This document shows, piece after piece, positions 13,761 through 52,532 of a DNA stretch of 64,000 nt; position 1 is the stretch's first letter, and every line of letters begins with the position of its first letter. A model generated the notes under the pieces. That model was not told the origin of the DNA. It did no database searches and worked only from the letters and a program-made list of their open reading frames with translations. The position numbers and the translations under genes were made by a program. The stretch covers positions 1,240,001 through 1,304,000 of the forward strand of contig NZ_ATLK01000001.1 in the NCBI RefSeq assembly GCF_000737845.1, given 5' to 3'. Source of the DNA: Bifidobacterium bombi DSM 19703 (lineage in GTDB: Bacteria; Actinomycetota; Actinomycetes; Actinomycetales; Bifidobacteriaceae).

Positions 13761-14507
13761 TCAACGCCGATTAGCCACATCATCGGAAGTAATTCGAGAG
13801 CCGTTGATCCGATCAAGTTTGCGCTCAATGATGTCCAACCGCGTGTTGAGACGCTCAACCTGTTCACGAGTGATCTTGGTCTCCTTCGCCTCATCGTCAT
13901 TGACCTCATCAACGATCCACGACGCCAGTGTAGCTGTTACCGTACCAATCAGGCCGATGCCAGCAAGCATGAGGGCATAGGCTATGACCCTACCCATGGC
14001 TGTCACTGGTGTGTAATCGCCGTATCCGACGGTGGTAATGGTGACGAACGTCCACCACAAGGCATCGCCAAACGTTTTGACACTCGCCCCGGGAGCATAT
14101 CGTTCAGCATCAAGCACCGCCAAAGACCCGACAAACAGAAGAATAATCAGAGAACTCGCCACGTACATGACGATCTTTCCCCGCAACGCCATTCCGCTGG
14201 TCTTATGCAACGCGTTTAAGGCTGAAATGATACGCAGAACCCGCAAAGGACGTATGACCGGCAGTACCACCACCGCCAAATCGAAAAGATGATGCTTGAA
14301 CCACTCCCACTTCTGAGGAGCGAGAGCAATGGAAACCACATAATCAAGCGCGAACACCGCCCACATCACGTTCATTACGAATTCCGCAGACCAATTCCAA
14401 ACGCCAGTCGGTTCAGCCAAAATCTGCCAAGCATATACTCCGATGAACAACACCGACAGCACCGTCAACGGCCATTCCGTTATTTTTTCCCATTGCTTAA
14501 GATTCAT
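13761..14507 (-). CDS. Voltage-gated-type potassium channel
   Basis: A 248-residue inner-membrane channel subunit, expected to act as a tetramer. Six hydrophobic segments are visible; the fourth is preceded by the charged voltage-sensor-like stretch RPLRVLR (Arg86, Arg89, Arg92) and the selectivity filter is TVGYGD (159-164). The C-terminal 50 residues are a hydrophilic coiled coil (QVERLNTRLDIIERKLDRI) that may hold the tetramer together; no RCK domain is present. This is the Kch/KvAP-like class. It is monocistronic, with no regulatory site recognised. Confidence 0.9.
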   Translation of the reverse strand: MNLKQWEKITEWPLTVLSVLFIGVYAWQILAEPTGVWNWSAEFVMNVMWAVFALDYVVSIALAPQKWEWFKHHLFDLAVVVLPVIRPLRVLRIISALNALHKTSGMALRGKIVMYVASSLIILLFVGSLAVLDAERYAPGASVKTFGDALWWTFVTITTVGYGDYTPVTAMGRVIAYALMLAGIGLIGTVTATLASWIVDEVNDDEAKETKITREQVERLNTRLDIIERKLDRINGSRITSDDVANRR

Positions 14508-14981: not shown

Positions 14982-15906
14982 ATGAAGAATACAACGCTCA
15001 CATGGTATGGGCTCATGGCATGTTTGGTCGCCACGCTACTCGTATCACCCATTTGCGTTACTGCGCAGGCGGACGAACCAGCTACTGCGCAAAGCGTCCT
15101 ACAATCGATGCCGGTCAAAGGGAGAGCACCAAAAACAGGCTACAGGCGGTCCCAATTCGGGCAGGCCTGGAAAGACGAAAACAGAAACGGCTGTGACACG
15201 CGCAACGACATTCTGAACAGGGATCTGACCGATAAACGATTCAAGCCTCGGACCAATGATTGTAAGGTCATTTCCGGAAAACTCGACGACCCGTATACCG
15301 GCAAGACAATCATCTTCAAACAGGGCCATATGACCTCCAACAAAGTGCAGATCGACCATGTAGTGGCTTTATCGAACGCCTGGCAGACCGGGGCGCAGCA
15401 GCTTCCCACCGAACGCCGCGAAGAATTCGCCAACGATCCATATAACCTTTTAGCTGTGGACGGACCGTCGAATCAGAAAAAGAAAGACGGAGACGCCGCC
15501 ACTTGGCTACCACACAATAAAAAATACCGTTGCGACTACGTGGCCCGTCAAATCGGCGTAAAGCACAAATACGGCCTGTGGGTGACATATCCCGAAAAAC
15601 AAGCCATGGACCGTATACTGCAATCGTGCCCTACACAACAGATTCCTCAAGACACCGATGCCGCCGGCGACTCCAACCCACAGCCCGACCCAGTGCCGGC
15701 TCCGGCACCTGAATCGGAAGCCATCCCCCACTCCGGCACCTGCACCTGCACCGGCGCCCGCACCGGCACCCATGCCGACGACCAATGATGTGTACTATCA
15801 AAACTGCGCCGCGGTGAGAGCCGCCGGCAGAGCACCTCTGTACTCAAGTCAACCTGGATACCGACCGGCCCTTGACCGCGACCATGACGGCGTGGCCTGC
15901 GAATAG
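14982..15906 (+). pseudogene. Secreted HNH nuclease with Excalibur domain, frameshifted
   Basis: The first frame (14982-15788) has a signal peptide (MKNTTLTWYGLMACLVATLL, cleavage near AQA) and a GmrSD-C/DUF1524-type HNH nuclease domain: RNGCDTRNDILNRDL, QIDHVVALSNAW with the catalytic His, and NLLAVDGPSNQKKKD. Near residue 248 it runs into a meaningless tail. The neighbouring frame carries on the Pro-Ala linker and ends in an Excalibur calcium-binding domain (YYQNCAAVRAAG, then DRDHDGVACE) at 15906. Dropping one C from the CCCCC run at 15725-15729 restores a single protein of about 307 residues with IPTPAPAPA across the join. It is either a frameshift, a phase-variable switch or a sequencing error. 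AAGGAG precedes the ATG. Confidence 0.85.
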
Positions 15907-15948
15907 AACGGACACATACTGACAAAGTCAAGCTATGGAAGGATTCCC

Positions 15949-16149
15949 ATGAAATTCGGAATGCGAAAACCCAGCGTCAGGCGCTCCATCAGTGCCAGGA
16001 CGACCGGAAGATTGAAACGGTCGGTCAAGAGGGCACTCATACCTGGTTATGGCAAAAAGGGCATGGGTTGGATTCGCAACCCAAGAAAAGCCGCATATAA
16101 CAAGATCTACCACAAGACCACGTTCAGCCTGTTCGATCTGTTCAAGTGA
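15949..16149 (+). CDS. Very basic 66-residue protein, paralogue A
   Basis: No function is recognised. The protein is about one third Lys/Arg and Gly-rich, starting MKFGMRKPSVRRS and ending in a hydrophobic patch (FSLFDLFK). It has no signal peptide or membrane segment. It is identical at 56 of 66 positions to the protein at 17793-17993; most differences are conservative. It starts 42 bases after the nuclease stop (GGA near the ATG) and is closed by the strong hairpin at 16162-16205, so it is the last gene of the nuclease transcript. The charge suggests nucleic-acid or membrane-surface binding; that is inference. Confidence 0.75.
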   Translation: MKFGMRKPSVRRSISARTTGRLKRSVKRALIPGYGKKGMGWIRNPRKAAYNKIYHKTTFSLFDLFK

Positions 16150-16161
16150 CATCAACCTGTT

Positions 16162-16205
16162 CAAGTAGCGTAAAACCCCGTTTCGGCGGGGTTTTACGCT
16201 ACTTG
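16162..16205. terminator. Terminator with a perfect 19-bp stem
   Basis: CAAGTAGCGTAAAACCCCG (16162-16180) and its exact complement (16187-16205) enclose the loop TTTCGG. The inner half is a classical A-tract/GC/T-tract terminator working in both directions. The rest of the space to 16449 shows no gene. Confidence 0.85.
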
Positions 16206-16449
16206 TGCCAAAGTAAGCGCGGCCATGCAGATGTTTTTCCCAATCACTAGGCTCTGCCGCATGATTGGCGGTGCTAGGGCCCTCGAAACAATGGTCTATG
16301 GCGTGCGAATGGGCTTTGTTGCAAGACCAACAGTGCCAGGGGTCTGCGGTTACGTCACCCCTACGTGGAAGACATGACAGTCCACACATAAATCCTTAAC
16401 CAACGGTATCCTACTTTTGGCAGAGATGCCAAGAAACAAAGGAGAAGAA

Positions 16450-17028
16450 TTGAAGAAACCGATAGCCATCCTTACTTGTCTAGCCTTGCTTGTTGGGGTC
16501 TCCGCGTGTGGATCAAAACATTCCACACTGCAGAATAGAACCTCCGCAACTTTAAAATCGAAAGAAACAGAGCCCAAACTGAAGACGCTACCCGATGGAC
16601 TATCAGGAACATGCGCAGGTGATCCATACGCACCGAACAATAATCTACAAAAAGTAGATCTCAATACAACTGATGGGCAACTAAATATTTCAATACCCAA
16701 CGCCACCGATATGATGCTCGTAGACGTCGGCTACTACGTCAACATATACACGAAGGATTTTAAACAAACGCAAATCAAAATCGAATATCATCAATCCGAA
16801 GATAAAAAAGAAGTAACAGTAGCACCATTGTTCGGAAACGCAAAGATCACAAAAATCGGTGGTTTTAACGTGGACTCCAGCGACGAAAACCTGCTTAATG
16901 TCAGCGTACCGACAAACTTAATCGCAGGAAATAAACATGTTACTTGGAACGCCGCATTAGATATGAATGGAAAGGATATCGCTTTCTGCCCGGGACAAAG
17001 CAAAGAAGAAAAAGTTCCGCTGCAATAA
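16450..17028 (+). CDS. Lipoprotein of unknown function
   Basis: Starting at the TTG at 16450, 5 bases after GGAG, the protein has a type II signal peptide (LKKPIAILTCLALL) with lipobox GVSAC, so a 192-residue lipid-anchored surface protein. Reading from the ATG at 16417 adds MAEMPRNKGEE, which would bury the signal and overlaps the leader hairpin. The mature part is AT-rich in DNA, mostly beta-strand-like, with two cysteines (TCAGDP, FCPGQ) that may pair. No family is recognised. It has the same leader hairpin as the nuclease gene upstream, suggesting common control. Confidence 0.7.
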   Translation: MKKPIAILTCLALLVGVSACGSKHSTLQNRTSATLKSKETEPKLKTLPDGLSGTCAGDPYAPNNNLQKVDLNTTDGQLNISIPNATDMMLVDVGYYVNIYTKDFKQTQIKIEYHQSEDKKEVTVAPLFGNAKITKIGGFNVDSSDENLLNVSVPTNLIAGNKHVTWNAALDMNGKDIAFCPGQSKEEKVPLQ

Positions 17029-17097
17029 TCAAGCATCGTTTCCATAACCAACTTCGATAGAGTTCATCAAACCATTTTAGAAGAGAGATTGAGAATC

Positions 17098-17781
17098 ATG
17101 GAAGAAAAAACCACTGTCATCCCACCAGTCAGCATGGACAGCGAAACCTCCGCACAGCAAGAGAAACCCTCTGATGTGACGTCGTCTGCCAATCTGCCAT
17201 CGAATAACGGAAGACAGAAACACACTCAAGGCAACAAGCCATGGAAGCAAATAATCACAGCGATCATCGCCTTCATCATAGGAGTTGCCATCACGTCTTG
17301 CGGCAGTACGAAACCCCAAGACACGCAGGAATACAAGGATCTGGACGCGAAGTACTCCAAGGTCAGCGATGATCTGAGATCCACCAAGTCGGAGCTTTCC
17401 GACACCAAGAAAGAACTCAAGGCAGCAAAGGAAAAAGCCGGCAAATGGGACAAGGAGCAAGCCAATAAGAAGGCCGCTGCAAAGAAGGCCGACGATGAAA
17501 AGAAAGCACAGGAACAAGCAGCGCAGCAAGCCGCACAGCAGCAGGCCGCCCAAGCCCAAGCGCAACAACAAGCCGAACAACAAGCACAAGCCCAAGCGCA
17601 AGCGCAACAACAGGCTCAGGCCCAACAACCAGCTCAAGCACAAACGCTGAGCCAAGGCGGACCAACCGTACACCGGGGAGCGTTCTGCTCAGGTCAAGGA
17701 GCCACCGGCACATCAGACCAGAACGGAGCCACCTTGACTTGCAGGACGGCGCGCGACGGACGACTCCGCTGGATGAACTGA
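17098..17781 (+). CDS. Membrane-anchored coiled-coil protein with Gln/Ala repeats
   Basis: About 50 hydrophilic residues precede one membrane segment (IITAIIAFIIGVAITSC), then a coiled coil (residues about 75-150, KYSKVSDDLRSTKSELSDTK), a long Gln/Ala repeat, and a C-terminal cysteine pair domain GAFCSGQGATGTSDQNG to CRTARDGRLRWMN. The architecture is that of a wall-spanning surface protein displaying a small C-terminal module. The ATG at 17098 is preferred; a TTG at 17089 is possible. The next gene, a basic 66-residue protein, starts 11 bases after the stop. Function unknown; a cell-surface or defence role is possible. Confidence 0.7.
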   Translation: MEEKTTVIPPVSMDSETSAQQEKPSDVTSSANLPSNNGRQKHTQGNKPWKQIITAIIAFIIGVAITSCGSTKPQDTQEYKDLDAKYSKVSDDLRSTKSELSDTKKELKAAKEKAGKWDKEQANKKAAAKKADDEKKAQEQAAQQAAQQQAAQAQAQQQAEQQAQAQAQAQQQAQAQQPAQAQTLSQGGPTVHRGAFCSGQGATGTSDQNGATLTCRTARDGRLRWMN

Positions 17782-17792
17782 AGGGAGAGATA

Positions 17793-17993
17793 ATGAAGTT
17801 CGGAATGCGAAAACCCAGTATCAAGCGGTCCATCAGCGCCAGGACGACAGGAAGAATGAAACGAGAGGTCAAAAAAACATTGATTCCGGGATACGGCAAA
17901 AAAGGTATAGGCTGGGTCAAGAACCCCAGAAAGGCCGCGTACAACAAGATTTACCACAAGACCACATTCAGTCTCTGGGATTTATTCAAATAA
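17793..17993 (+). CDS. Very basic 66-residue protein, paralogue B
   Basis: Paralogue of the protein at 15949-16149, with ten substitutions, seven of them conservative (Val/Ile, Arg/Lys, Leu/Met, Met/Ile, Phe/Trp types). The start at 17793 has GGGAGA upstream; a longer reading from 17739 would overlap the preceding gene. Again it is the last gene before a terminator (18001-18018) and directly follows a gene for a surface protein with a small C-terminal domain. The repeated arrangement is better evidence for a functional link than the sequence itself, in which no known domain is recognised. Confidence 0.75.
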   Translation: MKFGMRKPSIKRSISARTTGRMKREVKKTLIPGYGKKGIGWVKNPRKAAYNKIYHKTTFSLWDLFK

Positions 17994-18000
17994 TAATAAG

Positions 18001-18018
18001 GCCCCGCTTCGGCGGGGC
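18001..18018 (+). terminator. Rho-independent terminator after paralogue B
   Basis: GCCCCGC and GCGGGGC enclose a TTCG tetraloop, followed by TTCTCGTT. Standard terminator, very like the core of the one at 16162-16205. Confidence 0.8.
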
Positions 18019-18026
18019 TTCTCGTT

Positions 18027-18517
18027 ATACCCATGATTAAAATCAGTGCGGGTCCGATCAGCGAGCGCCTGACATTGATATTGATATAGGGAACGGTATT
18101 GCTGTTATGACATGTTCCATTGTTTTTCGGAAACGTTGCTATTCCAATAAGTCCAAATGCGCCGACACACCGTTCAGACTCTGTGATTCGTGTTTAAATC
18201 CTTACAATTCCAACGAAAAACAGTAGGCTCCTGCATAATCGTCATTTTTCATTGATAGAGAGGAAGTGGTGGACCAAGACCCCAGGTCGACCGGCCAACA
18301 TGGCAAGTCATGCTTGCTGGCCCAAATCCCACCAGGTTCCACCCGCTATTATTCCCCATTGAATCTATGGTCTGGCTTGTCTTGATCTCGGACTGTTGCG
18401 AGACTTTCACCGATATGCGGTTACTCATCTCAATGACGTCCGCAGTCGCAAAATAATTTTTGCATTTGGTGTGCATGTGACCTGATTTACGGATTTTCCG
18501 AAGACTTGAAGCAACCC
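18027..18517. other. Intergenic region, no gene seen
   Basis: About 490 bases with no supported ORF. An imperfect inverted repeat around GGCCAACATGGCAAG/CTTGCTGGCC (about 18293-18325) is the only structure noticed. The base composition is mixed and the region may be decayed mobile DNA next to the tRNA. Confidence 0.4.
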
Positions 18518-18550
18518 GAAAACTCAATGTTTCCAAAGGTTTCATTGAGT
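18518..18550 (-). terminator. tRNA-Arg terminator
   Basis: On the minus strand ACTCAATG and CATTGAGT (18550-18543 and 18529-18522) form a stem followed by TTTTCGGG, directly at the tRNA 3' end. Confidence 0.65.
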
Positions 18551-18622
18551 GGGCTGAATGGGATTCGAACCCACGACCTTCTGTTCCGGAGACAGACGCT
18601 CTATCCACTGAGCTACCAGCCC
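18550..18622 (-). tRNA. tRNA-Arg (anticodon CCG)
   Basis: The 73 bases fold as a cloverleaf: acceptor GGGCTGG/TCAGCCC, D arm with AGCTCAGTGGATAGAGC, anticodon stem TCTGT/ACAGA around CTCCGGA (anticodon CCG, reading CGG), and T arm GTGGG-TTCGAAT-CCCAT (last pair wobble). CCA is not encoded. No att duplication is seen beside it. Confidence 0.93.
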
Positions 18623-18738: not shown

Positions 18739-19392
18739 ATGAACGATTCGAACGCTATGGACGGAATACCCGGTCAGGTCAAGGAATTCGAGTATGACAG
18801 GCGGTTCTTCTGCCATGCGATGCCAGGCGAACTCGACGACGGGTCGGCACCTATGCTCATCGTGCAGAGCTACTACGTGGATAGCGACAACTATGCGCTC
18901 CGCGTGCGCCTCATCAGCCACAGCCTGCACATCGAGATGACCCCGTACACCGATCCGGAAAACGTGCTGCGCGAGCACAGGGACGACTTCACGTACGGTT
19001 CGGTCACCGTCAAAGGCCCGTCGGTCGGCGGCACGCGATATGAAGCCGAAAAGGAGATCGACGCATCGATCGCCGCGGAACTAATCCGCCGCGGCGGCAC
19101 GGACATCATCAAAAACCGTTACAACGCATGGGTCGGCGAGGACGGATGGGACATCGACATCTTCGGAGGCGCGAACCATCCACTTGTAATCGCCGAGGCG
19201 AAGCGCAACAGGCCGGTGACAAACCTCGTGATCCCAGACTTCTGCGTCACCGAAATCACCGACCAGGCACGATTCTCCAACGACGGACTGGCTGCACGCC
19301 CCTTCAATGAGTGGCAAGCCGAATTCATGAAGGAGCTGGCCGAGCAAGGCCCTCATTTCGAGCAGATCTACGGTCGCAACCGCATGGAATAG
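18739..19392 (+). CDS. CYTH-domain protein
   Basis: A 217-residue protein of the triphosphate tunnel metalloenzyme superfamily. The N-terminal EFEYDRRFF stands where the family has the ExExK metal-binding strand, with Arg for the last Lys; later strands hold alternating charged residues (YALRVRLISH, GTRYEAEKEID) and the C-terminal VIAEAKRNRPV, PDFCVTEITDQARFSNDGLA segment is typical. Members hydrolyse inorganic or organic triphosphates or act as class IV adenylate cyclases; which applies is unknown. TAGAAT at 18727-18732 ends 6 bases before the ATG and no ribosome site is visible, suggesting a leaderless mRNA. Confidence 0.75.
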   Translation: MNDSNAMDGIPGQVKEFEYDRRFFCHAMPGELDDGSAPMLIVQSYYVDSDNYALRVRLISHSLHIEMTPYTDPENVLREHRDDFTYGSVTVKGPSVGGTRYEAEKEIDASIAAELIRRGGTDIIKNRYNAWVGEDGWDIDIFGGANHPLVIAEAKRNRPVTNLVIPDFCVTEITDQARFSNDGLAARPFNEWQAEFMKELAEQGPHFEQIYGRNRME

Positions 19393-39172: not shown

Positions 39173-40054
39173 TCAGATATAGGTGTCATGTAATTCCACC
39201 GTGACTGATCCATCTCCCACACTGGCTAAGTGCAGCGTCACTGACCCTCCCGGTCGCACACTGGGTACTGCGCGACGAACCAGACTTCGGCTGACATCGA
39301 TTCCACCCATACTGGCAGTCTGCGACCTACAGTCCAAAATCAGAGGCACACCTGATACGACTTTGCCGGACCATTCCAGAGACTGTTCTCCATCACAGAC
39401 AATGACCACACCGTCAGGCCAATCGCCTGATACTGTTAGACATGGGTATGCAGTGGCGGTTCCTCGGTTGGATAGTCGAAGTAGATCATGTCCTCCGGCA
39501 GCCCGACCATAGGATAAGGGGTACGCTAGGCCATTGGCGTTCTGACCGTAGGATAAACCTCCTAAGGGCCCGGACTGTGGGATGAGCTGGCCCTCCTGGG
39601 CCTGCCATGACAGTCGTTCCGGTCGCGGGCACACCACGGTGAGAGTCCCGGTCATCCTGCCCTCATGCCAGGCGGGGTCCACACTAACGGTGGCGTAGCC
39701 TTCCACATAAGTGTCATCGCCACCGTCCACGACCCTCAGCCTGACCGGAACGGAAGCCGCGGACAGGATACGAGACAGCGCCGTGATCACCTGCGAACGT
39801 TCTTCGCCCAAGGCGACCCAGTGCAGGGTCACGGTGCGTGAGGAGTAGATAATCGCGTCGGGAGCGATGTCATGTGCCCCATTGCCCGAGGCACGTTCGG
39901 CCATGGTGACCTTCGCCTCGGGTGTCGACCGCCATCCCTCGATGCCTTCACCGCTGACGCCCAGACAGTCTGGCCGGTCCTGTGACATGCTGCCGCTGAA
40001 CCTCACCTGACGGTCGCGGTAGTAGAGGATCGCGAATGCTGGCTGATAGCTCAT
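39173..40054 (-). CDS. Distal tail protein (Dit-like)
   Basis: 293 residues immediately after the tape measure, overlapping its stop by four bases. MSYQPAFAILYYRDRQVRFSG and GIEGWRSTPEAKVTMAERASGNGAH correspond to the N-terminal ring domain of phage tail-family proteins, and the C-terminal galectin-like half has GTATAYPCLTVSGDW, a phrase common in Dit proteins. It should form the hexameric hub linking tail tube and tip. Confidence 0.7.
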   Translation of the reverse strand: MSYQPAFAILYYRDRQVRFSGSMSQDRPDCLGVSGEGIEGWRSTPEAKVTMAERASGNGAHDIAPDAIIYSSRTVTLHWVALGEERSQVITALSRILSAASVPVRLRVVDGGDDTYVEGYATVSVDPAWHEGRMTGTLTVVCPRPERLSWQAQEGQLIPQSGPLGGLSYGQNANGLAYPLSYGRAAGGHDLLRLSNRGTATAYPCLTVSGDWPDGVVIVCDGEQSLEWSGKVVSGVPLILDCRSQTASMGGIDVSRSLVRRAVPSVRPGGSVTLHLASVGDGSVTVELHDTYI

Positions 40055-43000
40055 GACACTCCCATCATCGAGGCGCGCAGCTGGCGCGCGGCCGTCCGAC
40101 CGTTGATGGTGCCAGCCACATATGGATCCTTGACACCGTAATTGTTGATGGTCACCTGCATGGCCGGCATGGGCTTTTCCTTGCCGGTCTCGCCGCGATC
40201 GCCATCCTTGGAGAACAGGGCCCTCTGCTGGTCGCCGGTGAGCACCAGCTCAGGGTCCATGGTCCGGTTGCTGACCACGGTCACGCCCGGGGCCAAGTAT
40301 CCGCCCTTGTCGTACAGTCTGGGAACGATGCCGCCGTCCGCGTACCCTCCGGGCCTATCGAGCGCCGACAAGCTCCCGTACCGGTGGATCGCATAGTTGA
40401 GTCCAGCGTAGATGTTGGCGAGCGGCTCCGTGATGGGGTGTCCTGCGAAAGGTCCCGCATAGGCGGCGAAAGTGGGCGGGATGACTTGCATGAGGCCCTG
40501 CGACGGCATACCCGCCTTGGCGTTGCTATCCCAATTGTTAATCGCGTTGGGGTTACCTCCGGACTCCTGGTTCATGCGTCGCAACACGGTGTCAGCCCAG
40601 CTGGCCGGCTGTGCGAGCATCTGCAAGGCCTGGAGCACCAATGGCCTCCATCGCTGCACACCGGCACCACCGTCACCTCCAGGTGCCGGAGCGCCACCGC
40701 CAAACAGGCTCGCGGCCATGCTTTTGACCTTATCGACCAGGGCCTGCATGGTCTTTATAGGCAGTTGGGCGATCAGGCTTCCCCAGTCGCCGGCACCGAT
40801 GCCCGCCAGCGCGGTCTTGACCGGGTCAACGATCAGACGGTTGACCGTCCCACCTGGGTCACGCACGAATTCCATGACACTCTTGGCGGCGTCATGGAGC
40901 CAATGCTCGGCATCCTTGACTATGCCACCCATGTCGAATCCGGGCACAATTCCCCCAGTGGAAAACCCCATGTCCGCGCGGACGGCCGCGGGGCCGGACT
41001 GACGTGCCAGACGGTTCCACCGATAGACGTTGTCGGCACCTACGGCCCGGGTCCATTCGGGCACCATCCACGCCTCGCCGGGCGAGGTCAATGCCAAGAT
41101 CGTGTCCTGGCCGGGCGCGTAGCCGGGGTTAATGCCACCTTCCGCAAAATGCGCGTCCGGCAGCTTCAAATCAAGGCCTACCGCGCCAGCGACCTTGTTC
41201 CATACCGCCTGGATTCCATTGGTGTACACAGTGTCGACAACCCAGTGCACAGGTTTTGCCGCAGCATCCTTAATCTGATCCCAGGAGCGTCCAATCCAAT
41301 CCTTCGTTGCCTCGAACGCCTGCCCGATATCATGGATGCCGTCCTTGAACGGCCCGATGACATGATCGTTGATCCAATTCCAAGCATCCCTGAACTTTCC
41401 TACGATCCAGTCCCACACGGGACGAATGTGACCATTGTAGAAGTCGTTCCATATCATACCGAGGCCCCTGATTTCGGCCTTGAAACCGTCAATAATGTTC
41501 GTCTTGATCCAATTCCAAGCATCCCTGAACTTTCCTACGATCCAGTCCCACACGGGACGGACATAGTTGTTGTAGAAGTCGTTCCACCGGTCGCCAAGAG
41601 TTTTGATGCCTTCCTTGAAGGGTTTGACGACATTCGTGTCAATCCACTTCCACGCCCCGCCCATAATTTTGCGGATTGCTTTGAATGCGGGATCGATGAC
41701 GTTGTGCCAAAGGTACTCCACGGGCTTACGCAGCAGGTTAAAGGCGATTACCCACGGGCTAACGAAGACCGTCACGACGAAAGTTATCAGGAACTTAAAA
41801 ACCTGGCTTATTCCATGCCCGGCCGCCTTGACGAAATTCCAGAATCCTTGGAACACCGATTTGATTTTGTTCCACGCAGCCTTGAAGAAGTTGACAAACG
41901 GACCGGCAAACCATTTACCGACGGACTCGCAAGTGTGCTTGACCCCACGCATCAACTTGTCAACGGCGTCATGAAAAGGCTTGCACTTGTTATAAGCAAG
42001 GACGAAAGCACCGACTAGAAGGCCGACAACTGTCACGATCTTACCGATCGTGCTCCCTTTCCACACAAGCTCAAGCAGCCCGAACGCTGTTTTGAAAGCG
42101 GATACCGCTTTACGTGCCAAGCCCACCGCCAGCGTCAAGCCAACAACTCCAGTAACAACCCCAGCCAGCACTTTAGTGAGCGTCTTATGACTATCGGTGA
42201 AAGCTTTAATCTCCAACGCCCAGTCGGTCATGCCGCGCATGGATTTGGTGATGGCTGGAAGGAACTTGGAGGCGAGGGTGATGCGCGATGTTTCGAGCAT
42301 CTGGTTAAACCGTTCGGTCTGCACTCTGGCGGTGCGCTGTGTCTCACCCCAAGTGCTGATATCTTTGCCGTTCTTTTTGGCGGCATCGGATATGCCGTTG
42401 ACGTTGCTGGCGAAAGTCTTGGCCGATCCTCCCGAAAGCATGAGCGCCGTGTTCATGCCGGTGGCTCCACCCATGATTTTCTTCAACGCCTCCGTATACG
42501 TCTGCGCCTGCGGCGATCCTTGTTTGAGCTGATCGTTAAACCCCTTGCTCTTGGTATACATCTGTTCCCACTGGCGCACCAGCGAGGCCTGGGTGTCAGG
42601 CAGCGCTTTGAGACCTTTGCGGTAGTCGTTGAGGGTCACAGAACCGTCCATGACGCCTTTGGCCAGCTCCTTCGACGCTCCGGTGAGCTTACCGAACATG
42701 GTATCAGCATCCTGAGCGGCGAACTTGGACTGGTTGAAGGCGTCCAGAAGGATAGTGCCCGAAGGCCCCATCTTCTGCAGGATTGTTTCACTGAGATATC
42801 CTATAGTGCCGGTAAGCCCCCGTTTGCCGAGATTCTGGGCCACATCCACGCTGCTGATGCCGAATTGCTGCATCTCCTTGACAGCAACCTGATTGGGTGC
42901 CTGAAGATTACGGATCGTGTTGGCCAGCTCTTGTGTGGACTCCTGCGCGGAGGTGCCATGGGACGTGAGAGTTGCTATTGCCCCACCCACCTGGTCGAAG

Positions 43001-44079
43001 CCGATGCCGGCAGCCGAGGCGACTGGGAGCACCGTAGACAGAGATCCGGCGAACTCCTGCATGGTGGTCTTGGCCTCTCCGGAGGCGGCGACCAGCTGGT
43101 TGGTGACGCTGCTGGCCCTGTCAGCGGGGATGTTGTAGGAACGCATGATGGAGGTCAGTGCGTTGGTCATGACGCCAAGGTCGACCTGCTCGTCGGTGGC
43201 CCCCTGCGCGGCTGCCTTAAGGACCTTAAGACCGTCCGCGCCGCGGATCTGGGCCTTTTCCATTGTGTACATGCCCTCGGCGAGCTGGCTGGTGCTAATG
43301 CCCGTCTGGACGGCGATGTCTTTGATGCCCTCTTCCACTTGGTGGAGGTTCTTTGTGGACTCGCCGCCAGCCGTGACGAGCAGGTTCATTTGCTTTTCGA
43401 AGCCTTCGGCCGCATCGGTGCTGTTCTTCATCCATTGCGCCAGTCCGACCGCGCCCAGGCCGACACCGAGCAGGCTCAGGCTTCTGCGGGCACCGTCCCA
43501 GATGCCTTTGAGCTTACCGGATTTCCCGCCGACCCCTTCGAGGGCCTGTCCGAAGCTTGCCCATTTGGATGGCTGCTCCTCGGTGGCCTTGGCGAGGTCC
43601 TTGTTGGCCTTGGTCAGCTGCTCGGTGGTCTCCTTTGATGCATTCTTGGCGACTTTAAGAGCTTTCTCGGAAGTTTCCACACGCTCGTTGGTCTGTCTGA
43701 CTCTGGCTCTGGCTGCGTCGAGCTGCGCTTCGGCTTTGATGGCCTGTGAGGAGGCTGGACCATACTTCTCTACCTGTTCAGAAAGTCGTTTCTCAGCGGC
43801 CTCCTGGTTTTTGGCGGCGACGGCCGCTGCGTCGCGCGACTTGGAGATGTCCCGCGTCGCGTCTTGCACCGCCCTTTTGGCTTTGGACTCGGCATCCTGA
43901 AGAGCAGACACCTGTTCCTTGAGCACGTCGGTCTTGGACGTGGCCGTCATGGACTGGGTCCAGGCGCGTCCCGCGGACTGTCCCGCCTGGCTTGCCGCGT
44001 CTGTGGTGCCTGTCAGCAGTAGTTTGGCAAATTCCGCCAAATCGGGCAGCACGGGCACGTATGCGGGTTTCACAGCCAT
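40051..44079 (-). CDS. Tape measure protein with a lysozyme-like domain
   Basis: Sets tail length and helps DNA pass the wall. The 1342 residues comprise a coiled coil (about 50-170), a TP901-like tape-measure core (GIGFDQVGGAIATLTSHG, about 345), several hydrophobic helices (about 650-720), two 45-residue tandem units containing RPVWDWIVGKFRDAWNWI (about 860-960) and, at 1140-1245, a soluble-transglycosylase fold with NQESGGNPNAINNWD (catalytic Glu about 1172) and GLMQVIPPTFAAYA. The tail length implied is about 200 nm at 1.5 angstrom per residue. ATGA overlap with Dit. Confidence 0.92.
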   Translation of the reverse strand: MAVKPAYVPVLPDLAEFAKLLLTGTTDAASQAGQSAGRAWTQSMTATSKTDVLKEQVSALQDAESKAKRAVQDATRDISKSRDAAAVAAKNQEAAEKRLSEQVEKYGPASSQAIKAEAQLDAARARVRQTNERVETSEKALKVAKNASKETTEQLTKANKDLAKATEEQPSKWASFGQALEGVGGKSGKLKGIWDGARRSLSLLGVGLGAVGLAQWMKNSTDAAEGFEKQMNLLVTAGGESTKNLHQVEEGIKDIAVQTGISTSQLAEGMYTMEKAQIRGADGLKVLKAAAQGATDEQVDLGVMTNALTSIMRSYNIPADRASSVTNQLVAASGEAKTTMQEFAGSLSTVLPVASAAGIGFDQVGGAIATLTSHGTSAQESTQELANTIRNLQAPNQVAVKEMQQFGISSVDVAQNLGKRGLTGTIGYLSETILQKMGPSGTILLDAFNQSKFAAQDADTMFGKLTGASKELAKGVMDGSVTLNDYRKGLKALPDTQASLVRQWEQMYTKSKGFNDQLKQGSPQAQTYTEALKKIMGGATGMNTALMLSGGSAKTFASNVNGISDAAKKNGKDISTWGETQRTARVQTERFNQMLETSRITLASKFLPAITKSMRGMTDWALEIKAFTDSHKTLTKVLAGVVTGVVGLTLAVGLARKAVSAFKTAFGLLELVWKGSTIGKIVTVVGLLVGAFVLAYNKCKPFHDAVDKLMRGVKHTCESVGKWFAGPFVNFFKAAWNKIKSVFQGFWNFVKAAGHGISQVFKFLITFVVTVFVSPWVIAFNLLRKPVEYLWHNVIDPAFKAIRKIMGGAWKWIDTNVVKPFKEGIKTLGDRWNDFYNNYVRPVWDWIVGKFRDAWNWIKTNIIDGFKAEIRGLGMIWNDFYNGHIRPVWDWIVGKFRDAWNWINDHVIGPFKDGIHDIGQAFEATKDWIGRSWDQIKDAAAKPVHWVVDTVYTNGIQAVWNKVAGAVGLDLKLPDAHFAEGGINPGYAPGQDTILALTSPGEAWMVPEWTRAVGADNVYRWNRLARQSGPAAVRADMGFSTGGIVPGFDMGGIVKDAEHWLHDAAKSVMEFVRDPGGTVNRLIVDPVKTALAGIGAGDWGSLIAQLPIKTMQALVDKVKSMAASLFGGGAPAPGGDGGAGVQRWRPLVLQALQMLAQPASWADTVLRRMNQESGGNPNAINNWDSNAKAGMPSQGLMQVIPPTFAAYAGPFAGHPITEPLANIYAGLNYAIHRYGSLSALDRPGGYADGGIVPRLYDKGGYLAPGVTVVSNRTMDPELVLTGDQQRALFSKDGDRGETGKEKPMPAMQVTINNYGVKDPYVAGTINGRTAARQLRASMMGVS
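41371..41586. repeat. 135-bp direct repeat in the tape measure gene
   Basis: The blocks starting at 41371 and 41506 share a nearly identical stretch of about 50 bases and further matches downstream, an offset of 135 bases or 45 codons. It is an in-frame duplication. Confidence 0.8.
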
Positions 44080-50329: not shown

Positions 50330-52096
50330 TCATGCGTACAGCCCATGCGAGGCGTACGGATTGTCCTTCAGGGTCGTCTTACGGGTCATCGCCTCGGAAA
50401 GCGCATCACAGATGGCGGCCACGCCGTCTATCTTGTCACGCGAATCCCTCTTGTTAGGCTGCACGTTGCCGTTCTCATCGCTTTTCACGGCGAGATTGTC
50501 GACGTTCCAGCGCAGTACGGGGTTGCCACCATGCTGGAAGAGCGGATGGTCCTCGCTGCCGGTCAGCAGCAGACGTTGCAGCTCCTTGAGTACCGGGGAA
50601 AGGGTTTTGAACCCCTGCCTGACCGGGGTCAGCCGATCCACGGATAGCCCCTGCTCCTCGAGATCGTTGACCACCTGGGTGGCGTTCCACGGGTCGTATC
50701 CGATGGTCTGGATGTCATAGGCCTCAAGGTCTGCGCGGATCTGCCGCTCGATATAGGAGTAGTCGGTCACGTCCCCGGGCGTGGGCACCAGGTAGCCGTC
50801 CCTGACCCATACGCTGGCGTTTCCGGATGTGCGCCGATCCAGGTCCTCAAGCGCGGCTTCGGGGCACCAGAAACGCATCCGGCACCGGTAGCCCTCGCCC
50901 TGCGGGAAGAGCAGGCACCAGGCCGTCAGATCGGACACCGAGCCCAGATCCCAGCCGCCATAGCATTCACAGCCCTCCAACTCGCTCTCATCCACGGTCC
51001 CGGCGTTGCGGTCCCAAGCCTTGAGGGTGATGAAGCGGGTCTCCTGCTTGGTGCGGATGCCCAGGTGCAGCCTCAGATAGTTGGCGAGCTCGGCCGGCGA
51101 ATTCCGCGCCCTGGTCGCCACCTTCGCCAGATAGTCGGCGCTTGGCGACACCCCGTAGCCGGGATTGGCCTTCATCTGCGTCTCCATGGCGAACGGGTCA
51201 TCGTCCTCATCAGCGCCCCACACCACCCCGTACCAGGAAGGGTCCTGGATCGTGCCGGCCGCCAGCTGCTCCACATAGTGGCGGGTCTCGTCGTAGATGG
51301 TGCCCGACTTGCCCGCGTCTGGGGTCGTGATGCGCACACCCAGGGGCTGCGAACGCGAGCCGCGTCCGGTTTCCAGGGTGCGGACCAGGTCGGGGGTTTT
51401 GTAGACGTGGAGTTCGTCGCAGATGAAGCAGTGCAGGTTCATGCCGTGGGCTGCGTCTGCGGCGGAGCTGATGACTTCCATGTAGCTGCCGGTGGCTTCG
51501 TGGACGATGCGTTTTTGGTGGGCTTTCATCACGCCTTTGAGGGCGGGTGTCTTCTCGACGAGTTGTTTGACGGGTTGGAAGACGAAGCCGGCTTGGTGTT
51601 CGGTGCTGGCGGCGCATACGACTTGTGCGCCTTCCTCGCCGTCGGCTCCGAGCATGTAGACGGCGATGCCGCCTGAGAGGGTGGATTTGCCGTTCTTGCG
51701 TGGCACATCCACGTAGAGGTCGTTGATGATGCGCACGGTTTGCCCGTCGTCGTTCTTGTGGACCCATCCGAAGACCGGGGCTAGGATCCATGCGACCTGC
51801 CAGGGGGCCGGGTCGAGGGGGTGGCCGGCCCACTTTCCTTGCGTGTGGCGCAGGACGTGGAAGGATGCCAGGACGCGGTCCACGCGGGATGGGTCGAAAC
51901 TGGCTCCCTCCATGTCGCGCGGCTCGGCGGTCTTGATTTTGGGCCGTTGCCATTTTTGGGGCAGGTCGAGTCCACGGGAGAGCATGTACCAGGCGACCTC
52001 GGGTGAGATTTTCAGGCGTTCCAGCTCATGGTCGGAGGGCAGTTCGATAGGTTCAGGTGCCGAAGGCGAAGGGGTTTGCTTCCTGGTCGCCATCAT
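50330..52096 (-). CDS. Terminase large subunit
   Basis: About 588 residues; ATP-driven DNA packaging motor and nuclease. Walker A is YVDVPRKNGKSTLSGG near residue 130, Walker B LHCFICDELHVY; the nuclease domain starts with GCECYGGWDLGSVSDLTAWC and has a second acidic site in IQTIGYDPWNATQVV. Starts at 52096, 52093 (ATGATG) or the GTG at 52102 are all possible; AGGTGAGG abuts them. It overlaps the small subunit by about 40 bases. Confidence 0.93.
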   Translation of the reverse strand: MMATRKQTPSPSAPEPIELPSDHELERLKISPEVAWYMLSRGLDLPQKWQRPKIKTAEPRDMEGASFDPSRVDRVLASFHVLRHTQGKWAGHPLDPAPWQVAWILAPVFGWVHKNDDGQTVRIINDLYVDVPRKNGKSTLSGGIAVYMLGADGEEGAQVVCAASTEHQAGFVFQPVKQLVEKTPALKGVMKAHQKRIVHEATGSYMEVISSAADAAHGMNLHCFICDELHVYKTPDLVRTLETGRGSRSQPLGVRITTPDAGKSGTIYDETRHYVEQLAAGTIQDPSWYGVVWGADEDDDPFAMETQMKANPGYGVSPSADYLAKVATRARNSPAELANYLRLHLGIRTKQETRFITLKAWDRNAGTVDESELEGCECYGGWDLGSVSDLTAWCLLFPQGEGYRCRMRFWCPEAALEDLDRRTSGNASVWVRDGYLVPTPGDVTDYSYIERQIRADLEAYDIQTIGYDPWNATQVVNDLEEQGLSVDRLTPVRQGFKTLSPVLKELQRLLLTGSEDHPLFQHGGNPVLRWNVDNLAVKSDENGNVQPNKRDSRDKIDGVAAICDALSEAMTRKTTLKDNPYASHGLYA

Positions 52097-52532
52097 CCTC
52101 ACCTAGTCCCTGTATCTGTCCTTCCGCTGCGGGATTGAGGCCGAAATCACGGGCGAAGGTGTGCACATCGGCCCTGGCGGCTTTCAATGCGGCCACTGCG
52201 GGATGCGGTTTGGGCACCCCTTGCGAGGTCTTGACCGTCATTCCTTCCTCCAGGAGCTGCTTTGTGGATTCGCGCATCTGCCAGACGGCCGTGCAGTACG
52301 CTTCCAGGCTCGGACCGTCCACTTTCTTGAGGATGCCTAAGCCATCCAGGGCCTCGACCACGCTCTTCCATACGGTCTTGGCCCCTTCGGGCAGGTAGGA
52401 CGGCATCCGGGGCTTCTCGCGCTCGAAGCCAATCTCCTTCTCGACCTTACGCCCTCCGGAGTCCCGGCCTTCGCCCCGTCCATTGATCAGGCGGAGCTTG
52501 GGAGGGGCCTTGAGCGGCCCTCGCTGACCCAT
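52053..52532 (-). CDS. Terminase small subunit, P27 family
   Basis: 159 residues from the ATG at 52532 (GGAGG upstream). It opens MGQRGPLKAPPKLRLINGRG, as P27-type small subunits do, with PEGAKTVWKSVVEALDGLGIL and LEAYCTAVWQMRESTKQLLEEG forming the oligomerisation helices and FARDFGLNPAAEGQIQ at the C-terminus. The 120 residues ahead of this ATG are Arg/Pro/Thr-rich nonsense from the intergenic gap. It recognises the packaging site. Confidence 0.88.
   Translation of the reverse strand: MGQRGPLKAPPKLRLINGRGEGRDSGGRKVEKEIGFEREKPRMPSYLPEGAKTVWKSVVEALDGLGILKKVDGPSLEAYCTAVWQMRESTKQLLEEGMTVKTSQGVPKPHPAVAALKAARADVHTFARDFGLNPAAEGQIQGLGEDDGDQEANPFAFGT

What the first reader, a model, noticed from the sequence alone, without database searches (positions are those of the whole stretch)
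14982..17993. Exported-protein locus in which two 85% identical basic miniproteins each close a transcription unit
A secreted HNH nuclease, a lipoprotein and a wall-spanning coiled-coil protein lie in tandem, and a 66-residue Lys/Arg-rich protein follows the first and the third. The paralogues match at 56 of 66 positions, and both end at strong terminators. A pattern of surface protein plus invariant basic partner suggests a modular system, for example delivery, stabilisation or self-protection for an extracellular nuclease. Function is inference; the arrangement is seen.
Basis: partly seen in the sequence, partly recalled or inferred. Interest (0 to 1): 0.72.

Follow-up and report, generated by a model that had tools for sequence, protein, structure and literature searches.

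The report
Mobile basic miniprotein paired with surface proteins
Two copies of a tiny, strongly conserved and unstudied protein found in phages, plasmids and chromosomes of many bacteria sit beside exported proteins here, and the pattern suggests a mobile surface-protection cassette, possibly against phages, though its function has not been tested.

Summary
One correction: the HNH ORF and its Excalibur domain lie in different frames.

The 66-residue protein has no Pfam, NCBIfam or PADLOC match; four function-unknown PHROGs match it in full. Relatives occur in 90 phage and 17 plasmid records, 21 of 112 genus genomes (own included), lysogeny modules and an integron.

The predicted link to exported proteins is partly supported. 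Lipoproteins are immediately 5' in 6 of 57 neighbour clusters (controls 0 of 217) and in 4 of 28 (0 of 74) in a second subfamily; the general export excess did not repeat there. Excalibur, sunset, YHYH and Ltp proteins recur beside it. Some relatives are fused to a transmembrane helix and tail, others to HIRAN, SAP or exonuclease domains.

A nuclease-specific role is not supported: 35 of 47 genomes with a close HNH relative lack the 66-aa gene.

Best reading: the inner-face half of a mobile two-sided membrane cassette, most likely a superinfection-exclusion accessory. The pairing is fairly well supported; the function is inferred.

The parts
14982..15788 (+). ORF with signal peptide and HNH domain (GmrSD C-terminal family); probably a resident chromosomal gene; ends in the Pro/Ala linker
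   Evidence: PF07510 6e-24; family in 111 of 112 genus genomes, close form (59% or more) in 47 by hand count; a channel gene lies next to it in 7 of 24 relatives, in the window's orientation only in L219
15658..15906 (+). Excalibur-coding frame (domain about 15796-15903), not in the frame of the HNH ORF
   Evidence: PF05901 1.8e-17; of 21 copies compared, closest to the module partner in L039 (Bifidobacterium sp. B4142), 89% aa and 79% nt, against 65-74% nt for 20 nuclease-attached copies
15949..16149 (+). 66-residue basic protein, copy 1
   Evidence: PHROG 10934 1e-32; net charge +18; dN/dS about 0.06 against copy 2
16162..16205 (+). perfect hairpin after copy 1, probable terminator
   Evidence: 19-nt inverted repeat; MFE -36.9, z -8.9; not picked up by the consensus scan
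16450..17028 (+). lipoprotein (TTG start, lipobox VSAC), no family match; rare in the genus
   Evidence: translation; no Pfam hit above cut-off; 4 of 112 genus genomes, own included, the other three at 27-34% identity
17098..17781 (+). single-TM protein: hydrophilic N-terminus, TM, Gln/Ala coiled coil, C-terminal Cys domain GAFCSG..TARDGRLRW
   Evidence: TM 52-70; same architecture 5' of the 66-aa gene in B. xylocopae L032
17793..17993 (+). 66-residue basic protein, copy 2, 11 nt after the TM-protein gene
   Evidence: PHROG 10934 3.5e-32; net charge +17
17997..18027 (+). hairpin after copy 2, probable terminator
   Evidence: MFE -19.6, z -3.9

Best explanation
The 66-residue protein is a mobile, cytoplasmic, very basic helical module that sits on the inner face of the membrane (its C-terminal end is mildly amphipathic, and some relatives carry a transmembrane helix at that point). 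It works as the inner half of a two-sided cassette whose outer half is an exported or membrane-anchored protein with an interchangeable tip (here Excalibur before copy 1 and the Cys/TARDGR domain before copy 2). Such cassettes travel in prophage lysogeny modules, plasmids, integrons and islands. The most likely job is protection of the carrier cell against other phages, in the manner of superinfection exclusion: the outer part acts at the wall or membrane where phage DNA enters, and the basic inner part binds membrane and/or incoming DNA. SHOWN: family, conservation, mobile contexts, recurrent exported neighbours, fusions. INFERRED: membrane contact, interaction of the two halves, anti-phage role. 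I put the two-sided pairing at about 0.65 (lowered from 0.7 when a recount left fewer independent Excalibur cases) and the anti-phage function at about 0.4.
For: Lysogeny-module slot: phiEf11 has repressor - M78 - lipoprotein - 66aa - lipoprotein - integrase; similar slots in TPW22, SM1, pneumococcal phage 23782; an integrase follows within 3 kb in 64 of 171 first-subfamily records. It is the slot of ltp in TP-J34 (PMC3952083, passages). Lipoproteins: 6/57 upstream and 6/58 downstream clusters against 0/217 controls; 4/28 upstream against 0/74 in a second subfamily. Ltp proteins beside the module confirmed by Pfam in L176, L181 and L036. Excalibur proteins directly beside it, found with a profile made from nuclease-attached copies: L039 and the alike trio L371, L390, L400, besides the window. 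Sunset in L038 and L328, YHYH in L044, L046, L089. Fusions: module-TM-tail L356-L359; module with HIRAN (L177, L074), SAP (L113), exonuclease (L092), zinc ribbon (L053), TM2 (L074, L095). Integron setting with a signal-peptide ORF right after the module.
Against: No functional test. 32 of 57 upstream clusters are soluble; 29 of 171 records have an M78-like peptidase directly 5'. The general export excess failed to repeat in the second subfamily (upstream p 0.36, downstream 4 of 16 clusters, p 0.75), and downstream in the first it was not significant (19 of 58, p 0.08). The second subfamily rarely showed lysogeny-module genes (integrase downstream in 1 of 52, M78-like upstream in 2 of 52). Controls come from all parts of the loci, so the lipoprotein excess may partly reflect lysogeny-module position. 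PADLOC gives the module no hit. The window island has no integrase or repressor beside it and no att-like repeat. The AF2 model is moderate (pLDDT 80.9, pTM 0.46) and without any PDB fold match.
Confidence: 0.4

Rival explanations
1. Biogenesis factor: the basic protein helps its exported neighbour to be targeted, anchored or kept stable at the membrane, whatever that neighbour does.
For: Tight linkage to export partners: 11 nt gap before copy 2, 4-nt overlaps in L371, L390 and L400; fusions to TM plus tail.
Against: Many copies have only soluble neighbours; fusions to HIRAN, SAP and an exonuclease point to DNA rather than export.
Confidence: 0.22
2. Stand-alone nucleic-acid-binding prophage accessory protein (for example regulation or silencing in the lysogen); lipoprotein neighbours only reflect that both kinds of gene gather in lysogeny modules.
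For: Net charge +17/+18; DNA-domain fusions; lysogeny-module position with M78-like neighbours in the first subfamily.
Against: Export partners also in an integron setting and in loci without recognised phage genes nearby; TM close to the position of the C-terminal tail in fused forms.
Confidence: 0.23
3. Accessory of the secreted HNH nuclease (delivery or self-protection).
For: The HNH ORF lies 5' of copy 1; in several Bifidobacterium genomes a close HNH gene and a 66-aa gene lie 4-25 kb apart on one contig (positions).
Against: 35 of 47 genomes with a close HNH form lack the 66-aa gene and 9 genomes have it without the close form (hand count); copy 2 and nearly all relatives have no such nuclease beside them.
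Confidence: 0.05
4. Small cationic toxin or bacteriocin-like peptide with the exported neighbour as immunity or export aid.
For: Small and basic, mildly amphipathic C-terminal end.
Against: Mean column identity of 76% over 72 sequences from several phyla is unlike fast-changing toxins; fused forms bear DNA-related domains.
Confidence: 0.05

Closest known systems
Ltp-type superinfection exclusion of phage TP-J34 (Lipoprotein_Ltp, PF07553)
   Same: Same lysogeny-module slot in relatives; Ltp proteins are direct neighbours of the module in L176, L181 and five alike viral contigs, L036 (Pfam for L176, L181, L036) and L392
   Different: In the passages I saw, Ltp acts without a described basic partner; the window lipoprotein has no Ltp domain and the window locus is not a lysogeny module
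Unnamed phage proteins: TPW22 orf3, SM1 gp2, phiEf11 PHIEF11_0033; PHROGs 10934/3374/4721/29766
   Same: Sequence homologues, 65-74% identical to copy 1
   Different: Annotated as unknown or hypothetical; no paper naming the family or its pairing came up in my searches
Pneumococcal CbpL (Excalibur + choline-binding + Ltp modules)
   Same: Excalibur and Ltp, two neighbour domain types seen here, occur in one surface protein (PMC5137146, passages)
   Different: No 66-aa partner in the passages seen; studied there as a surface protein in infection
HIRAN-domain proteins of pneumococcal prophages
   Same: The N-terminal 65 residues are the module, then TM and HIRAN, between repressor and integrase
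   Different: One fused protein instead of a separate exported partner

Membership tests
PHROG 10934 (unknown function) | full-length match over residues 1-66 | tested here: met
   1e-32 and 3.5e-32
Ltp-type superinfection exclusion | lipoprotein with PF07553 repeats | tested here: not met
   window lipoprotein has no PF07553 match at E up to 1
Ltp-type superinfection exclusion | gene lies in a prophage lysogeny module | tested here: not met
   window island lies between a channel gene (by eye) and a tRNA-Arg, with no integrase or repressor ORF recognised beside it; an integrase follows within 3 kb in 64 of 171 first-subfamily records
Ltp-type superinfection exclusion | blocks phage DNA injection | not testable with these tools
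   needs phage challenge
Excalibur domain proteins | PF05901 match and DxDxDGxxCE motif | tested here: met
   1.8e-17; DRDHDGVACE present; but in a frame apart from the HNH ORF
Ribosomal or other housekeeping family | match to a curated family or solved structure | tested here: not met
   no Pfam or NCBIfam hit at E up to 1; best PDB sequence hit E 1.7; no fold match at E up to 10
Known anti-phage defence families (PADLOC 2023) | profile match of the 66-aa protein | tested here: not met
   0 families for both copies at E up to 0.01

The most novel reading that the evidence does not exclude
An undescribed class of mobile two-sided membrane systems spread across bacterial phyla: one nearly invariant basic protein on the inside, and a swappable exported protein with a small surface tip (Excalibur, sunset, YHYH, Ltp, Cys/TARDGR) outside, protecting lysogens and other carriers from incoming DNA.
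Probability: 0.3. Interest if true: 0.85.

Novelty: new variant of a known kind. Interest (0 to 1): 0.6.

Why it matters
A 66-residue protein found in 90 phage records and in several bacterial phyla matches no curated family and has no known function. If it is the constant half of a surface-protection cassette, many hypothetical proteins in temperate phages become interpretable, and the question of how membrane-level exclusion works becomes directly testable with a two-gene construct in laboratory strains.

Tried and rejected
Att sites: no repeat of the tRNA-Arg end flanking the island. HNH-66aa as a functional pair: made unlikely by distribution. Recent tandem duplication: copy 2 is as close to the B. 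xylocopae copy. Fold match: none in PDB. Papers: no paper naming the family came up, nor one on an integron cassette with this gene; a search on the tip domains gave only PMC7824862 as relevant, whose passages predict a YHYH domain of phage tails to be a metal-dependent hydrolase. The flank search with the gene at 18739-19389 found no second genome with it near the HNH gene.

Weak points. Gene calling was a simple longest-ORF method and export prediction a hydropathy rule; both misjudge high-GC loci (L390's exported protein was scored soluble), and some adjacent ORFs were read by eye. In one search the integrase, M78-like and Ltp profiles were seeded from module neighbours; of the six M78 seeds only L120 was shown by Pfam to be M78 and L117 was not; two of four Ltp seeds were dropped for wrong coordinates. 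In one search the YHYH, sunset, Ada-like, Cys/TARDGR and PBCV-type profiles were also seeded from neighbours, so only the Excalibur profile is independent; L371, L390 and L400 are alike and count as about one case. L044's YHYH match and L170's HIRAN match are below the curated cut-offs. The sunset protein of L328 lies 167 nt from the module, outside my 150-nt limit. One contig is in both neighbour sets (L187 = L412). The scans took 150 of 165 non-redundant neighbours (15, mostly long or truncated, left out).
Full report
WHAT IS THERE. On the + strand between a channel gene (13761-14507, minus; K+ channel-like by eye from its TVGYGD motif) and a tRNA-Arg (18549-18622, minus) lies a 3-kb island of lower G+C (0.52 and 0.48 in its two 2-kb windows, 0.57 and 0.55 on either side). 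It holds a secreted HNH ORF (14982-15788), an Excalibur-coding frame (15658-15906), 66-aa copy 1 (15949-16149), a hairpin, a lipoprotein (16450-17028), a single-TM coiled-coil protein (17098-17781), 66-aa copy 2 (17793-17993) and a second hairpin. The two 66-aa proteins agree at 56 of 66 positions (best of 10,000 shuffles: 15), dN/dS about 0.06 with dS near saturation. Of 24 relatives of the HNH gene, 19 have HNH and Excalibur in one ORF; L219 has a stop inside Excalibur; L226, L227, L229 and L232 end early and no Excalibur was found in their 3-kb loci.

WHAT THE 66-AA PROTEIN IS. No Pfam or NCBIfam family matches at E up to 1. Four PHROGs of unknown function match over residues 1-66 (a fifth in part); those families are 103, 268, 304 and 149 positions long, i.e. 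the module can be an N-terminal domain. tblastn finds it in 90 of 50,697 phage records and 17 of 72,556 plasmid records, in 21 of 112 genus genomes and 5 of 396 phylum genomes, the window's own included in both. Of 171 records of this form (exact duplicates removed), 145 are free-standing (75 aa or less) and 26 longer. A 72-member alignment has mean column identity 76%, with R6, S13, A16, T18, R24, Y34, G38, N51, Y54 invariant. A second subfamily (RTS....GxKxPxGxG) occurs on plasmids of Proteobacteria, Virgibacillus and Acetoanaerobium and in Paenibacillus and Geobacillus phages; of 52 viral-contig records 46 are free-standing (80 aa or less). AlphaFold gives four helices (10-17, 19-30, 39-43, 45-57), pLDDT 80.9, pTM 0.46; no PDB fold match at E up to 10 and one chance-level sequence hit (E 1.7).

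WHERE IT LIVES. In several temperate phages it sits in the lysogeny module: repressor, often an M78-like peptidase, sometimes a lipoprotein, the 66-aa gene, sometimes a lipoprotein, integrase. Over the 171 first-subfamily records an integrase follows within 3 kb in 64 and an M78-like gene precedes within 3 kb in 39; in the 52 second-subfamily records the counts are 1 and 2 (profiles seeded from neighbours). It is also in a satellite phage, near GmrSD/Orf5-like and NsnA-like defence genes in the B. catenulatum group, in a class 1 integron on a Citrobacter plasmid (a 70-base stretch after it resembles the OXA-2 cassette end in 7 of 5,426 E. coli genomes) and next to an integron-integrase-like ORF in L354 (by eye).

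THE NEIGHBOUR TEST. I clustered co-directional neighbours within 150 nt of the 145 free-standing copies and compared them with the genes preceding other small genes of the same loci. Upstream, 25 of 57 clusters are exported or membrane proteins against 49 of 217 controls (p 0.0015); lipoproteins are 6 of 57 upstream and 6 of 58 downstream against 0 of 217 (p about 7e-5 each; unclustered 15 of 109, 15 of 90 and 1 of 304); the downstream export excess is not significant (19 of 58, p 0.08). In the second subfamily the upstream lipoprotein result repeats (4 of 28 against 0 of 74, p 0.005) but the general excess does not (10 of 28 against 22 of 74, p 0.36), and downstream nothing is significant (export 4 of 16, lipoprotein 1 of 16). 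Named neighbour domains include Lipoprotein_Ltp, DUF1541, Big_2, LysM and DUF4352, YHYH and sunset and Excalibur. Among 150 non-redundant neighbours 8 match Phage_integrase, 8 HTH_3, 5 Peptidase_M78, 3 Lipoprotein_Ltp, 2 Excalibur and 3 YHYH, so phage-control genes outnumber the tip domains. A profile built only from nuclease-attached Excalibur copies, run over 16,564 ORFs of the loci, found nine distinct ORFs (the window is listed twice): four belong to resident HNH genes 3.5 kb or more away; the other five are within 42 nt of a module: the window's own piece, L039, and L371, L390, L400, which overlap it by 4 nt and begin with signal-peptide-like stretches. Of 10 Ltp ORFs found with a neighbour-seeded profile, 9 lie 12-23 nt from a module (six from closely alike viral contigs) and one is elsewhere.

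FUSIONS. L356-L359 join the module to a TM helix and a short tail; the TM starts at residues 56-59, about where free-standing copies carry a mildly amphipathic end (moment 0.32-0.67 in five examples). Others fuse it to TM plus HIRAN (L177), HIRAN plus TM2 (L074), SAP (L113), a DEDDh exonuclease (L092), zinc ribbons (L053); L170's HIRAN match is below the cut-off. In 31 of 32 longer forms a TM is predicted and the part before it has net charge +8 to +32, so by the positive-inside rule the module is cytoplasmic.

HOW THE WINDOW LOCUS MAY HAVE ARISEN. The HNH family is in 111 of 112 genus genomes and its close form in 47 by hand count. A channel gene lies next to it in 7 of 24 relatives, in the window's orientation only in L219, whose genome G002 has no 66-aa gene. 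The HNH gene is therefore probably resident. The Excalibur piece before copy 1 is most like the Excalibur partner in Bifidobacterium sp. B4142, which is followed 9 nt later by the 66-aa gene. I infer that an incoming partner-66aa cassette recombined with the resident gene in the Pro/Ala linker; the margin (79% against at most 74% nt) is small. Copy 2 with its TM partner resembles B. xylocopae.

MECHANISM. Best reading: inner-face basic module plus exported partner, a mobile two-sided cassette, most likely protecting the carrier from other phages. In lysogeny modules the slot equals that of ltp in TP-J34, whose product blocks DNA injection (PMC3952083, passages read), and Excalibur and Ltp occur together in pneumococcal CbpL (PMC5137146, passages read). 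DNA-domain fusions fit contact with incoming DNA. None of this is a functional proof; the biogenesis and DNA-binding rivals stay open.

Noticed in passing
window about 35000-60000, minus strand: ORFs that look by eye like a tailed-phage structural and replication set (tail, long tape measure 40051-44079, capsid, portal, terminase 50330-52102, RecT-like, YqaJ-like): a prophage some 17 kb from the island. The genome's only two good 66-aa matches are those of the island.
   Followed up: no
L326:4001-4450 and L354:5001-5480: Second-subfamily homologue followed about 15 nt later by an unannotated signal-peptide-like ORF, in a class 1 integron of a Citrobacter plasmid and in a viral contig beside an integron-integrase-like ORF.
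   Followed up: partly
L085, L204, L206: In the B. catenulatum group the module lies near GmrSD/Orf5/HEC-06-like (L085) and NsnA-like (L204) genes, a likely defence hotspot a few kb from an HNH gene and the channel gene.
   Followed up: partly
L202, L211, L213: Apparently decayed copies of the 66-aa gene in three Bifidobacterium genomes (early stop or frame change).
   Followed up: no
HNH loci L219, L226, L227, L229, L232: The Excalibur tail of the secreted HNH gene is broken by a stop (L219) or not found (the other four), as it is out of frame in the window: repeated loss or variation of the tail.
   Followed up: no
L332:1621-1971: A Streptococcus satellite phage carries the module with a C-terminal extension.
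   Followed up: no
L359, + strand, 76 nt after the fused module: An ORF that looks by eye like a secreted staphylococcal-type nuclease.
   Followed up: no
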